From contig JBBELK010000485.1 of the NCBI GenBank assembly GCA_037783545.1, positions 620,001 through 684,000 on the forward strand: a DNA stretch of 64,000 nucleotides. The letters run 5' to 3'. This document shows, in pieces, positions 32,364 to 38,839 of the stretch (position 1 is its first letter; every line of letters begins with the position of its first letter). The DNA comes from Henricia sp. BOLD:AAB3569. Lineage: Eukaryota; Echinodermata; Asteroidea; Spinulosida; Echinasteridae. The position numbers were made by a program, and so were the translations under genes. Under the pieces are notes generated by a model. The model was not told the DNA's origin. It made no database searches and saw only the letters and a list, made by a program, of their open reading frames with translations.

Positions 32364-33205
32364 GTGAGTTGATGCTTGAGACTATATTCTTATAATGTGT
32401 GTGCTATGTTTCTGTTTTACGCGCATATTTCGTTACGGTTTGTTCGATTTCACATTTGAAAACTTCATCTTACTAGTAATTGTGGAAAATACCAAGCTTT
32501 TGTTGCAGTGCTCGGGCGAAGCCGAGCGTCCCTTTTACGAGATCAAAAACAAAAGACAAATGAAATATCCCCGGCTTGATTTGGGGTGCTCGTGTATGAC
32601 GACAGTGAATATTGGTTAGTTAAGCCTAGTATTTTCATGTCGTGGCCGCCCGTGTGGTATCGCAAGACGATTATAGAGTGATAATATTACATGTAGTCCG
32701 GGTCGAGATGGGAAAAATTCAATACAAGGCCCAGTGTGTAAACGTTCATAATGTAACAAAAATGTTGGGTATGTTTTTGTTTGTTCTTTTGTTACTTACT
32801 GCTACTGTAGCAAATAGTACACATACTTGTAAATTCCTCCTAGTTGGTTTATTGTTTAGTTGCTTGATCACCCCATTGCATTTCTTTTGTTAATATATCT
32901 AATATGGGGCAGGGTCAGTGCTTACAAATTTACATTTCAATCATTACTTGCATGGCCCTTCATCGGGTGAGGAAATGTAAATACGTTCGGTTGAGCGACC
33001 AGGTGCGAATTAGAATGTATTTATTTTCTTCACGGTGCGTGGTTTTCAATGGCCTTTGTTCAGGTTGCGTAATGGGGCAGGGGTATAGGGTGTGCTCAGG
33101 TCTATTCGGTTCATTCAGGTCAGTTCCGCGCCGGCTGTTAAACTTCCATTTTCCCCCGTCAATCTTAACACTAGTCTCAACGATAGTCATCTATCATATA
33201 CGTGC

Positions 33206-34394
33206 AATGTTTGCCGAAGACATCGATCCGTCTTCCGCGCCAGCTACCAAAGCTGATATTCAAGAAATTTTATCAGCTTTTGCGTCGACGTTCGACGAAA
33301 AGTTGAGACAGACGAGATCAGAAGTGGTAGAGCTTCAGACTAAAACAACGAAATCACTGACCGAGAAGATAAAGGGCACCACCAAAACAAAATGGCGTAG
33401 AGAGGGGAACCAACGACAATTCGAATTTAACCAGCTAAGTGTTTCTTATGTATTTTTCCTTCCTCTCCGGGGATTTTTTTCTCTGTTATGGCCTTATAGC
33501 CGGGTTTTTTAAATTTTTAAAAAGCCAGATCAGGTCGGGGTTTTTCACTCTCCTTCTTTAACCTTCAGTATGGACACACTGTGGAGTTGCCATTGCATTC
33601 GGTGTCCGAATACACTGACATATCCCAAATTGTGTTCAATTGTGAGTTATTTTGTGTTAGTTGGGCTATTGTCTGGGGCATAGGGAAGAAATGTAAATAC
33701 GTTCGGTTGAGCGACCAGGTGCGAATTAGAATGTATTTATTTTCTTCACGGTGCGTGGTTTTCAATGGCCTTTGTTCAGGTTGCGTAATGGGGCAGGGGT
33801 ATAGGGTGTGCTCAGGTCTATTCGGTTCATTCAGGTCAGTTCCGCGCCGGCTGTTAAACTTTAAAAATTGTATAAATAACCAAATCAATGCTGTTCTTCT
33901 GTTACAGAGAAGTGAAAGATTTGGTCAGCCGCGCCATTGAAGAAGCAGAAGAGATCAGTTCCGTCAAAACGACGCTAAACGAAGCAGTGAAACTACTTGA
34001 CGGTAGGCAGAAGCTAATTCGACTAGCAGACACGAGCCAGTACGGGTGGGCCACAGTGTCGGAGTATGAGGCTCACGAGGTGGCAGATGACGAGAATGAC
34101 GACACCAAGATCACAAAAGCGGAAAACCGGGCCGGACGCAAAATCAAGCAGAAGAAGTCAACTACTGCGAGCCAAGCAAAGCGGTTTAAGCGGGATCAGC
34201 CTGCGCCCAGCATTGCTACTGACATTAACTCTGCTCTTTTTCGTCGACCAGTCCACAGCATGTCATTTGGCCAAGCCCACGGTGGAGGCTACACCGGCAC
34301 CGCCGGAGCTTGTTTCCTTTGCGGAAGCTTCAACCATTGGAAAGCAACTTGCCCCAAGCGTAAAGGAGCATCGGCCAGTTACACCGGCCAATAA
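33206..34394 (+). CDS. gag: Gag-like region of the DIRS-like element, in two parts
   Basis: The first part lies left of the inner B-A repeat block and begins near MFAEDIDPSSAPATKADIQE. The second, after 33900, ends in a zinc knuckle (CFLCGSFNHWKATCP). Spliceosomal introns have been reported in some DIRS elements, and the inner block could be carried in one; this is inference. Confidence 0.65.
33606..33861 (+). repeat. Internal B-A junction of the DIRS-like element
   Basis: 83-bp B copy, AA, then 171-bp A copy, both seemingly identical to the element's outer ends. It equals the sequence expected at the joint of a circular intermediate. Confidence 0.88.
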
Positions 34395-36426
34395 AGATAA
34401 GTCGAAATCAGTATGTATCCCAGACAGTTCCTCTGTGTCAGGAATAAGCGGTACTTATCATGAGATTGATTCTTTCGATTATGAAAGTGTACAGGTGTCT
34501 GGTATCAAAGTGGCTGGAAGACTGCGTGATCGTGTCCAGTTTTGGCACAACATTTTTGCTCCTTCCTTTATTGTTGATACCATAACATTTGGGTACGTTT
34601 TGCCTTTCATTATTGAACCACCAAAGATGTATTCGGAAAATAATAAATCTGCCTTGAATCATTGTTCCTTTGTAAACCAAGCTATTACCGAGCTTATTCA
34701 ACTAGGAACCATTCAAAAGTGTTCCAACCCTCCTAGAGTTGTCAATCCTCTAACTGTCTCGGTACAGAGTAATGGCAAAAAACGCCTTATTCTGGACCTC
34801 AGGTTGGTCAATAAGTATCTTGACAAGGTTTCAGTTAAGTATGAAGACATGAGAACGGCGATCTTGTTCTTAAAGAAAGGCGGATACATGTTCAAATTCG
34901 ACTTAAAATCCGGATACCACCATGTGGACATATGCAAATTGCACAGAGAATTTTTGGGTTTCGCATGGAAAGTTGACGGTAAAAAATTATTTTACAAATT
35001 CAACCAACTTCCATTTGGCCTTTCTACGGCCCCATTCATATTCACGAAGTTAGTCAGACCACTTGTTAAAAAGTGGAGAAGTGAGGGAAAACTCATAGTC
35101 GTCTATCTTGACGACGGCTTGGGTTTTGCTGCAAGCTACGAGCAAGCATTGCAATGCAGTTTGCAGGTCAAGACGGATATTACTGCCTCAGGGTTCGTAA
35201 TAAATGAGGAAAAAAGTGTGTGGGATCCTGTTACTAAGATCGAATGGCTGGGATACGATATTGACTTAAATGAGGGTTTTATCTCGGTACCAGATAGACG
35301 AATATTGAGTATTCATAAGGAAATTCATTTTATGATTTATAATAATGCAGCCTTAAACACGGTTCCTGCTAGAACCTTGGCTAGTATTACAGGCAAGATC
35401 ATGTCTACCAGTCTAGTGACTGGAAATGTGTCCAGAGTGATGACTAAGGCATTACACACATGCATAGAAACGAGAACTTCGTGGGGAAGTTCAGTCGTTC
35501 TTTTGCCCGGAGCATTGGACGAATTGAAGTTTTGGGAAACTAATATCACACAGATGAACAAGTGCCCTGTAGGCCCTCGTGCTGATTGTTCTAGAATTGT
35601 CTTTTCTGACGCCAGCAGCACAGGTTATGCTGGTTACCTAGTCGATCTAGGAGATACAATCGCACATGGCCAGTGGGATAATAGTGAATCACAGAAAAGT
35701 AGTACTTGGAGGGAGCTTAAAGCAGTTGATTTGGTACTCAAATCTTTGGCTCCAAAGTTGTCCTGCCGAAGGACAAAATGGTTTACAGATAACCAGGCAG
35801 TGGAAAAGATTGCTGTAAAGGGGAGTATGAAACAAGACTTGCAATCATTAGCCCTGAGTATATGTAAGACATGTTTGTCGCATAATATCCGGCTGGATAT
35901 GGAATGGATTCCAAGGGCAGAAAACGAAAAAGCAGACAAACTCAGTCGTATTATCGATAATGACGACTGGAGTGTTGCTGGTGAAGTATTCCAATTTTTT
36001 GATAACCTCTGGGGTCCCCACACTGTAGACAGATTTGCTTCGTTTTACAACTGCAAGATCGTAAGATTTAACTCCAGATTTTGGAACCCCGGATGTGAAG
36101 CCATTGATGCATTCACTCAGAATTGGGGTAGTGATAACAACTGGATTGTCCCTCCAGTCTCAATCATTGCAAGAGTCCTTGCCCATATGGCAGATACGAA
36201 AGCTGTTGGCACACTAATTTGTCCCTGCTGGTACTCGGCACCCTTTTGGCCCATGCTTTTTCCAGACGGTTGTAATCCAATAAAAGCAGTGGTGGACGTA
36301 TATGAAATTCCCAGATACCCGCAAATCTTCGTGCAAGGTAGAGGGGGTAACAAAGAATTTATAGAGAATGTAATCAGAAGCAAAATTTTGGCAATAAGAC
36401 TCAATTTCAAAATTATCAAGGATTAA
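34320..36426 (+). CDS. DIRS-like reverse transcriptase / RNase H / methyltransferase-like protein
   Basis: Open from an in-frame position overlapping gag to 36426. Reverse transcriptase boxes include KKRLILDLRLVNKYL, MFKFDLKSGYHHV, FGLSTAPFIFTKLVRPLVKK and VVYLDDGLGF. RNase H follows (IVFSDASSTGYAGYLV, WFTDNQAVEKI, WIPRAENEKADKLSR). The last part (WGPHTVDRFASFYNCK, FTQNWG, WYSAPFWPMLF) is the DIRS methyltransferase-like domain. The protein copies the RNA into circular DNA and is distinctive of the DIRS group. Confidence 0.88.
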
Positions 36427-36453
36427 GGTCATCGGGAGTTCCTTCATTGTGAT

Positions 36454-37503
36454 TTGGTCCTAATAAATGTTTCAATCCCATTTCAGGCCATATTTACCAA
36501 AGGCATCTGGAGTCGACGTAAGAAACCAGATGACCCCGAACTGGAGACGCTCGCTTCGCAAATCCCAGGATTGATGCTCGCGGCTAGGGCCGAGTCTACT
36601 GTAAATGCTTATTCGAATGCTTTTAAGAAGTGGTCCGAATGGGCGGGAAAATTTAGTAAGCCAAATTTACCTGCAGATTCGTTTGATATTGCACTTTATT
36701 TAGTGCATTTAGGGAATTCCTCAAAATCCGCATCATGCATTACTAAAGCCCTTGCAGCCATTTCGTGGGCTCATAAATTAGCTGGATCAGGTGATCCAAC
36801 CTCTTGCACAGTCGTTTCCATGACTGCCGAGGGACTTAAAAGATCCCTTGCAAAACCAATCACTAAGAAGGAACCCGTCTCGCCGGAAATACTCAAAAAC
36901 ATGGTTGACAAGTATATTGGTGATAAAGGTTACAATGCTTCTAATTTTATGAACATAAGGACTGTGACGATGTGCTTGTTAGCGTATGTCGGGTTTCTTC
37001 GATTTAATGAAGTATCCAACATAAAACTGGGTCATGTAACTTTCACTACGGAGGGCATGGATCTATTTTTACCTTCGAGCAAAACGGACGTTTATAGAAA
37101 TGGAAAGTCTGTCGCAATATCTGCTACCAAAACCACGTACTGTCCAGTAACCTTGCTTAAGGAGTATATTAACTTAGGAGAGATTGCTGATCCCAACGAG
37201 TTCATTTTTAGAAGTTTATCCAAGTACAAAGAAGGGTATAAACTTCGACAAACAAATCAGCCGTTGTCATATTCACGGGTTCGAGAACTCGTTCTAGAGG
37301 CCCTACGTCCCTTGGTGGGAAATGTCTCGAGTTACGGTTTTCACAGCTTTAGGGCTGGAGGTGCTACTACGGCAGCAAATGCTGGTGTGGGTGAACGGTT
37401 GTTCAAGAGGCATGGCAGATGGAAGTCTGACAGTGCCAAAGACGGCTATGTTCAAGATAATAAAGAAAGGTTGTATTCTGTGTCCATGGCTTTGGACTTA
37501 TAA
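36454..37503 (+). CDS. DIRS-like tyrosine recombinase
   Basis: About 349 residues with an N-terminal SAM-like/core-binding region (AESTVNAYSNAFKKWSEWAG). The catalytic part has GFLRFNEVSNIKL (first Arg), YGFHSFRAGGATTAANAG (His-x-x-Arg), HGRWKSDSAKDGYV (His/Trp and the Tyr nucleophile). It replaces the integrase of LTR elements and inserts a circular intermediate by site-type recombination. It follows the preceding frame by a short gap. Confidence 0.9.
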   Translation: MVLINVSIPFQAIFTKGIWSRRKKPDDPELETLASQIPGLMLAARAESTVNAYSNAFKKWSEWAGKFSKPNLPADSFDIALYLVHLGNSSKSASCITKALAAISWAHKLAGSGDPTSCTVVSMTAEGLKRSLAKPITKKEPVSPEILKNMVDKYIGDKGYNASNFMNIRTVTMCLLAYVGFLRFNEVSNIKLGHVTFTTEGMDLFLPSSKTDVYRNGKSVAISATKTTYCPVTLLKEYINLGEIADPNEFIFRSLSKYKEGYKLRQTNQPLSYSRVRELVLEALRPLVGNVSSYGFHSFRAGGATTAANAGVGERLFKRHGRWKSDSAKDGYVQDNKERLYSVSMALDL

Positions 37504-37969
37504 GTCAACAAAGTGTGGTTGAAATAAGTTGACACATTAATTCGTATTAATGAGCACAGATTTGCTCACTTAAGTCGTGTAGCGTATAAAATAGTAGTAC
37601 TTATACGTAATGAAAATTGGCATAATTCCAATTGAAAATTTACTTATGATTTTAAATGGCGTTAATTTCAGATTACCAGAGACAAGTTGTCATGGTTATT
37701 TAGTATATTTAGTAACTTTGTTAAGTGAAGTAGAAATATAGGCATAGTGGTGTCTGCCATGAAGCTATTTTGCATTAGTTCAGACCTACGTTTCTCACCC
37801 AGAATTAAAAAGAAAAGACAGGGGTGAGTTTTTCGCAGCTGGCTCAATAGCGTTTTGCCTATATAGGTCATTATGATGATATGAGCATACTAATTGTTGG
37901 TTTTTCACTCTAATTGTATACATATACAACCATACAGTACTCTGTAAGTACAGACTGCTCAGCCGGTGG
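37504..37969. other. 3' non-coding part of the DIRS-like element
   Basis: AT-rich sequence between the recombinase stop and terminal repeat B. No gene seen. Confidence 0.5.
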
Positions 37970-38839
37970 CCGAATACACTGACATATCCCAAATTGTGTT
38001 CAATTGTGAGTTATTTTGTGTTAGTTGGGCTATTGTCTGGGGCATAGGGAAGAATGGCATCTTCCTAATCCATGTATTCAAAATCACTCTTGCATTGAGT
38101 TGTAATAGCAAAAAGCTAGTACACAGGTCTGCATGGGTAGGATTTCTGACTGGGTGCTTGAAGGGGAAAGGTCTCCCCTGTTTCTGTTGTTATATTTTTC
38201 TGCTCATCTTTTTTTATTACTTTGCTAAGATTTGGTTTAGTTGAAGTTGTGTATTTATGGTGGATGTCGGAAAATCTGTTTACATGCAGACCTGTGTTTA
38301 GTGCCAACCATTTCAGCCGTGCTACTAATAATTTGTAAGTGTTACTTTTGAGTTTGATTTATTGTGTATGTAATGTGTAATTTTATGTGTGAGCTACATT
38401 GTGCAATTTGATTTGTATTTGAGTATGACCAAGTGGGACGGCGGCCACTGATCGGCAGAGGGAGTTTGAGCCTCTGGATAGTGGTCACTACTTTATAGTT
38501 GCAAATTGCATTTTATTTGATAATTAGCACAATGTGGCTCATACTACCATGATGGTGTGAGTTCTTTATCGGCAAGTGACTGGTTTTCTTGTTACTTGGA
38601 TATGGATCACATTATCATTGATAATTACACATTAAGCATAAGCATCATTAATACGTGACGGCTCATAACAAATACACGCAACTGTTTTTCTGGGGAGCTT
38701 AATTGTACTTTTAGTTATTCTTGAAATCCATACTGTTTAATTTGCAAGTTAATTGTTTTATTAAAGGCCACGAAGATTAGTGGTTTTTGAACAAGATCAA
38801 CTGGTGATTCCTTATTTTGTTGGGTTTCGTTACAGTTTT

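What the first reader, a model, noticed from the sequence alone, without database searches (positions are those of the whole stretch)
32975..38052. DIRS-like element with its right and left end repeats fused inside the 5' coding region
Seen: an 83-bp right-end repeat (B) and a 171-bp left-end repeat (A) recur internally as B-AA-A at 33606-33861, between two gag-like parts. Known: DIRS1 has an internal region complementary to its ends, and PAT/Ngaro elements have split direct repeats with the junction copy at the 3' side. A junction copy close to the 5' end, inside or between gag parts, is an arrangement I do not know from described groups. It could template circle closure during reverse transcription, and might be removed from mRNA as an intron. 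An alternative is a short non-autonomous copy (32975-33690) and a full copy inserted head to tail; the gag N-terminal part lying only in the left piece speaks against that.
Basis: partly seen in the sequence, partly recalled or inferred. Interest (0 to 1): 0.85.

Follow-up and report, generated by a model that had tools for sequence, protein, structure and literature searches.

The report
Jumping element with gag-intron circle junction
A tyrosine-recombinase retrotransposon of a probable marine animal carries the repeat thought to close its DNA circle inside what looks like an intron of its first gene, a stable arrangement shared by several related families in the same genome, while most other related families examined keep that repeat at the far end.

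Summary
The element (32975-38054) has the order A1, gag N-part, B1-A2, gag C-part, RT/RNase H/MT, tyrosine recombinase, B2. It is not an accident of this locus: the same order occurs at 7 independent sites in the 740 Mb genome (8 copies, one duplicated with its flanks; 97.5-100% identical) and in three further families (4 loci) whose pol is 61-69% identical. None of the 8 pol-bearing copies found lacks the block. In a pol tree these families form one clade (100/100). The nearest other own-genome family and 7 more have B1-A2 3' of the recombinase, so the junction most simply moved once, into gag. The block lies in an intron-like segment (33434-33907): its removal restores gag with no codon gained or lost, the acceptor is conserved, and one donor position, always GC, is in frame in all 5 loci. 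By arrangement this is a PAT-like (split-direct-repeat) element with a derived junction position. I saw this position in no passage that I read; Figure 1D of the key paper was not visible. The likely mechanism is that unspliced RNA supplies the circle-closing template and spliced RNA makes Gag. Splicing and circles are inferred, not shown.

The parts
32975..33145 (+). A1, left terminal repeat
   Evidence: Identical to A2; same left boundary ATGTAAATA at 7 independent sites
32979..33022 (+). Inverted repeat at the start of A (same in A2, 33695-33738): recombination site or RNA hairpin, undecided
   Evidence: 10 pairs, 97.1% of 70 cells paired in 7 loci picked by eye, 4 pairs changed on both sides; not evident in L039-L042
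33210..33433 (+). gag N-terminal coding part (exon 1)
   Evidence: Open frame ATG...FNQ; intact in 6 of 8 full copies; homologous to the uninterrupted gag of L033
33434..33907 (+). Inferred GC-AG intron, 474 nt, holding B1-A2
   Evidence: CCA|GCTAAG...TTACAG|A; of GT/GC donors from -60 to +120 the only position in frame in all 5 gag-junction loci
33600..33690 (+). B1, internal copy of the right terminal repeat
   Evidence: 99% to B2 over 91 nt
33691..33861 (+). A2, internal copy of the left terminal repeat; B1|A2 has the sequence a B2|A1 circle junction would have
33908..34394 (+). gag C-terminal coding part (exon 2), zinc knuckle at about 34308-34358
   Evidence: No stop in 8 of 8 full copies; zf-CCHC E 0.0086, below the curated cut-off, motif legible
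34027..36426 (+). pol frame: RT (34774-35262), RNase H (35710-35946), MT-like (35956-36186)
   Evidence: RVT_1 2.8e-19; RVT_3 0.0068 and Dam 0.0049, both below cut-off; overlaps gag in another frame
36427..37503 (+). Tyrosine recombinase frame; pyrimidine-rich CAG, like a splice acceptor, at 36460-36486 before the conserved start
   Evidence: Phage_integrase 3.4e-9, above cut-off; CAG in 6 of 7 loci compared, AAG in L034
37964..38054 (+). B2, right terminal repeat; insertion without target-site duplication
   Evidence: Ends GGGAAGAA; the right flank starts AA at 7 of 7 sites while the left flank ends AA (4) or TT (3)

Best explanation
This is a recently active PAT-like tyrosine-recombinase retrotransposon whose split-direct-repeat junction (B1-A2) has moved from a place 3' of the recombinase gene into an intron of gag, most simply once, in the ancestor of a clade of at least four families. 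Shown: the order, its presence as a unit at many sites, its conservation between families, their grouping as one clade, variants shared by A1 and A2 (or B1 and B2) within copies, and an intron-like segment whose removal restores gag exactly. Inferred: RNA starting in A1 and ending in B2 lacks the outermost bases. The unspliced RNA carries B1-A2, which bridges the cDNA ends and restores the B2|A1 junction in a DNA circle. The tyrosine recombinase then inserts the circle with no duplication. Spliced RNA makes Gag but cannot template circle closure.
For: Eight of 8 genomic B-A blocks are flanked by A upstream and B downstream, at 7 independent sites. L023, L025, L031 and L032 have the same order; L031 and L032 are one family at two different sites; L026, damaged, fits it. 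Tree clade 100/100; the nearest other group holds L033 with uninterrupted gag and 3' junction. Seven of 12 database homologues of the gag C-part, including Asterias rubens P0123, start at the same gag position behind non-gag residues. The GC donor at position 0 is the only one in frame in all 5 loci. All 8 window-family pol copies found retain the block. C95 has one base not in the other copies in both A1 and A2; C356 has one in both B1 and B2, as expected if one repeat templates the other.
Against: There are no RNA data. The window's donor CCA|GCTAAG is a weak, non-consensus site. L023 and L025 have further in-frame donors, among them TAA|GT 15 nt downstream at a conserved TCAGCTAAGT motif that is unexplained. 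No circle was observed. Homogenisation is incomplete: one base at the inner edge of B differs between B1 and B2 in all 8 full copies, and C433 differs at another. A search for spliced genomic copies did not complete. The tree is rooted at the midpoint for drawing only, so the direction of the move rests on the 3' form being the commoner one.
Confidence: 0.75

Rival explanations
1. The architecture is a chance head-to-tail insertion of a short A-gagN-B copy next to a full copy.
For: Each module has both ends, and solo copies exist: A-gagN-B at C599/C492, C64, L022 (5' end lost) and L027/L028; L043 starting at A2 without gagN (right end not read); L029 as A...B without gagN, internally deleted.
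Against: The composite is at 7 independent sites and in three other families; in no locus read is the gag N-part in the long module, and none has a complete gag beginning at A2.
Confidence: 0.05
2. There is no splicing: gag N-part and C-part are separate small proteins with the junction in an untranslated spacer.
For: The window's donor is weak, and no RNA is available.
Against: Joining gains or loses no codon against the uninterrupted gag of L033; pyrimidine-rich tract plus CAG acceptor in all 5 loci; the same boundary in 7 of 12 database homologues.
Confidence: 0.15
3. The inner junction plays no part in replication and is a harmless relic.
For: Its use as template is inferred from models of related elements, not observed.
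Against: It is kept in all 8 window-family copies found and in four families, with A1/A2 repeats 98-100% identical within copies although the families differ by 31-39% in pol protein.
Confidence: 0.08
4. Assembly artefact.
For: A tandem duplication of about 37.66 kb, or an assembly repeat, includes this copy.
Against: Six other sites have unrelated flanks, and three other families show the same order.
Confidence: 0.01

Closest known systems
Echinoderm-form Pat1-like elements (SpPat1; PMC4157794, sections 6-7 and passages)
   Same: Gag zinc finger, RT-MT-YR, split direct repeats; related families in this genome have the 3' junction
   Different: Junction inside gag here. The paper says that nematode and echinoderm forms differ in the placement of the internal repeat, but the text I saw does not say where it lies in the echinoderm form, and I could not see Figure 1D
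Nematode-form Pat1 and Kangaroo
   Same: Split direct repeats, MT domain
   Different: Their internal repeats lie between MT and YR (PMC4157794, section 7); here inside gag
Ngaro / VIPER / TATE
   Same: A1...B1A2...B2 logic; isolated AB units are known (Cafeteria Ngaro, PMC8547959; SIRE in VIPER, PMC6681497; passages read)
   Different: Ngaro and VIPER have the junction 3' of YR and lack MT; one Bodo saltans TATE copy is listed with A1, A2 at the 5' end but B1, B2 at the 3' end (PMC6681497, passage), so without a B1-A2 block there
DIRS1
   Same: Tyrosine recombinase retrotransposon with MT and an internal template for the ends
   Different: Inverted terminal repeats and internal complementary regions, not direct repeats (PMC3266345, passages)

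Membership tests
Tyrosine-recombinase retrotransposons (order DIRS) | RT plus tyrosine recombinase, no integrase | tested here: met
   RVT_1 2.8e-19 and Phage_integrase 3.4e-9, both above cut-off; no retroviral integrase or protease family among the hits of the four frames scanned
PAT-like | Split direct repeats A1, B1, A2, B2 | tested here: met
PAT-like | MT domain | tested here: inconclusive
   Dam 0.0049, 17.0 bits against a cut-off of 28.1; homologues P0001 20.1 and P0022 27.2 bits
Pat1-like | Zinc finger in Gag | tested here: met
   CX2CX4HX4C read directly; zf-CCHC 16.6 bits, below the cut-off of 20.8
Pat1-like | Internal repeats at the position described for the group (MT/YR in nematode form; 3' of YR inferred for echinoderm form) | tested here: not met
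   B1-A2 lies between the gag parts
Pat1-like | Groups with PAT reference elements in RT/YR trees | not tested
   No reference PAT sequences were at hand; the tree holds own-genome loci and 27 of the 120 listed database proteins
DIRS1-like | Inverted terminal repeats | tested here: not met
   No long inverted pair joins the ends; the six pairs listed have arms of 22-27 nt
Ngaro/VIPER | Junction 3' of YR, no MT | tested here: not met
   Junction in gag; MT-like match present but weak

The most novel reading that the evidence does not exclude
Splicing is the switch between expression and replication: because the circle-closing junction is inside the gag intron, every spliced RNA is sterile as genome and every replicating RNA must be unspliced, and the conserved poor (GC) donor keeps the two pools in balance. 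This would be a retrovirus-like genome/mRNA partition reached independently by moving a recombination template into an intron.
Probability: 0.35. Interest if true: 0.8.

Novelty: new variant of a known kind. Interest (0 to 1): 0.62.

Why it matters
As far as I know, the way split-direct-repeat retrotransposons close their circle has been inferred mainly from anatomy. Here the anatomy has changed within one group, with both forms side by side in one genome. That makes the model testable: circles, splice products and solo modules have predicted sizes. It also gives an independent case of an element whose intron must be kept for replication yet removed for Gag.

Tried and rejected
Chance repeats: rejected. 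Accidental composite: rejected for single copies. DIRS1-type inverted repeats: none found. Known RNA families: none up to E 5 in 32900-38200. Viral contigs: 4 stretches matched a pattern, none a relative by tblastn. Other donors: L023 and L025 have further in-frame donors, L031 and L032 have two upstream, and the window has a poor one at +51. My first gag C-part frame check used the wrong frame and showed false stops; corrected. P0133 was first read as an uninterrupted gag; its residues FNQQVLAKC fit a read-through of a GCAAGT donor as well, so it is not counted. A wider count of copies by the gag N-part DNA did not complete. L024, L030 and L044 are fragments that do not show the order and are not counted. 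Papers: PMC4157794 sections 6-7 and passages; passages of PMC3266345, PMC6681497, PMC9210276, PMC8547959, PMC2685390, PMC8969392, PMC3783388, PMC12477816. PAT (1992) and Kangaroo (2002) are not held.

Full report
Observation. The direct repeats are real and slightly longer than reported: A is 171-177 nt (32975-33145 and 33691-33861) and B is 91 nt (33600-33690 and 37964-38054), each at 99% or better. Between A1 and B1 lies an open frame, 33210-33433, ending ...GNQRQFEFNQ. After A2 lies 33908-34394, starting EVKDLVSRA and ending in a zinc knuckle. Then come RT, RNase H and an MT-like stretch, and a tyrosine recombinase. The zinc knuckle, RNase H and MT matches are below Pfam's cut-offs.

A mobile unit, not a local accident. 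The 256-base B-A block occurs at 8 places in the source genome (42 matches, 40 of 45 candidates scored). At all 8, A lies upstream and B downstream. The two C485 copies share at least 8,037 bases of identical sequence, within a tandem duplication of about 37.66 kb, so they count as one insertion; this leaves 7 independent sites with unrelated flanks. Match pieces to the window's element are 97.5-100% identical. Six copies aligned end to end differ by 0-0.71%. The gag N-part frame is intact in 6 of 8 (shortened in C727, broken in C433). The gag C-part has no stop in 8 of 8. YR has none in 8 of 8, and pol is whole in 7 of 8 (C727 is interrupted). Left flanks end in AA (4 sites) or TT (3) and right flanks begin with AA (7 of 7), with no duplication, as expected of a tyrosine recombinase.

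Same order in other families. Two loci first found by A-repeat similarity, L023 and L025, have A1, gagN, B1-A2, gagC, pol, YR, B2 in that order, with pol 63-69% and gag 45-60% identical to the window's. Of 12 further loci fetched by pol similarity (chosen from the 68 matches), two (L031, L032: one family, two sites) have this order. Eight (L033-L037, L039-L041) have B1-A2 3' of YR. L042 has a junction 3' of pol with no YR found, and L038 is unresolved. In L033-L037 the gag matches run on in one frame. In L039-L041 gag is continuous past this position, or nearly so, but breaks further on, near residue 46 of the C-part, with no junction in the break. A tree of 42 pol proteins (the window, 14 own loci, 27 of the 120 database proteins listed) puts the gag-junction loci and P0001-P0004 in one clade (100/100). 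The group next to it holds L033 with P0005, P0006 and the Amphiura filiformis proteins P0010 and P0025. The root is a midpoint, and the junction type of the database proteins is unknown; the 3' junction is the likely ancestral state, with one move into gag.

The intron. In all five gag-junction loci (4 families) the segment can be removed from after AACCA or AATCT, starting with GC, to a pyrimidine-rich CAG, giving introns of 421-516 nt and an exact join. L033 encodes the same protein stretch without interruption (FNQ-SVNDL against FNQ-EVKDL). Of GT and GC donors from -60 to +120, only position 0, always GC, is in frame in all five: GCAAGT in L023 and L025, GCTAAG in the window, L031 and L032. 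Of 12 database homologues of the gag C-part, 7 begin with non-gag residues directly before the same boundary, among them P0123 from Asterias rubens (in P0125 and P0131 these are only two or three residues). Four start further inside and say nothing, and one (P0132) is uninterrupted. An acceptor-like site also precedes YR: pyrimidine-rich CAG in 6 of the 7 loci that I compared, including the 3'-junction locus L033, and AAG in L034. So these elements may use the host spliceosome anyway. No RNA was available.

How it probably works. The element needs a template for its outermost bases, which a transcript lacks. B1-A2 is a copy of the junction that the circle must have. Variants support templating: C95 carries one base in both A1 and A2 that no other copy has, and C356 carries one in both B1 and B2 that is otherwise only in C433's B1. 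Against full homogenisation, C433 is mixed there and a base at the inner edge of B differs between B1 and B2 in all 8 full copies. If the block is an intron, only unspliced RNA can be copied into a circle. All 8 window-family pol copies found retain it. The general circle model is recalled from work on DIRS1, PAT and Ngaro, and summarised for DIRS1 in PMC3266345 (passages).

Solo modules. Each half has an A and a B end, and each is found without the other. Short ones are C599/C492 (one event), C64, L022 (5' end lost) and L027/L028 (one event). L043 begins at A2 and lacks the gag N-part (its right end was not read), and L029 is an internally deleted A...B unit without it. They may come from resolution of circles at the two junctions or from recombination between repeats; the data do not decide.

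Comparison and novelty. By split direct repeats, zinc finger and (weakly) MT this is PAT-like, but the junction position matches no group described in the passages that I read. PMC4157794 gives MT/YR for nematode-form Pat1 and Kangaroo and 3' of YR for Ngaro and VIPER, and only says that the echinoderm form differs. PMC8969392 notes that 'other configurations exist'. My ten searches listed no paper whose listing or passages, as far as I read them, describe a junction inside gag or a gag intron. The library lacks most subscription papers, so this is not proof. The host is probably an echinoderm (inference only).

Noticed in passing
window 24030-61688 and beyond (G000:C485): The region is part of a tandem duplication of about 37.66 kb (99.8-100% identical where compared), recent or an assembly repeat; it carries the element twice.
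   Followed up: partly
window 32979-33022 and 33695-33738: An inverted repeat at the start of A with compensating changes between families of both junction types: covariation score reached by 0 of 500 shuffles, number of pairs changed on both sides by 63 of 500. The 7 loci were picked by eye; L033 pairs imperfectly and L039-L042 do not show it. Recombination site or RNA hairpin.
   Followed up: partly
window 36460-36486: A pyrimidine-rich CAG, like a splice acceptor, stands before the conserved start of the recombinase in the window and in 5 of 6 other loci compared.
   Followed up: partly
L039-L041, near residue 46 of the gag C-part: Gag breaks and changes frame across about 160-290 nt at another position than in the window's clade, with no repeat junction in the gap; possibly a second, unrelated gag intron.
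   Followed up: no
L023 4331-4350, L025 4619-4638: The motif TCAGCTAAGT is conserved just inside the intron next to the GCAAGT donor; the window's and L031's donor looks like the product of a 10-nt deletion joining the two.
   Followed up: no
L042: A related pol locus with a split-repeat junction 3' of pol but no recombinase match found.
   Followed up: no
L012/L013 (C727) and L016 (C433): Two full copies of the family carry internal insertions of about 3.7 and 3.1 kb.
   Followed up: no
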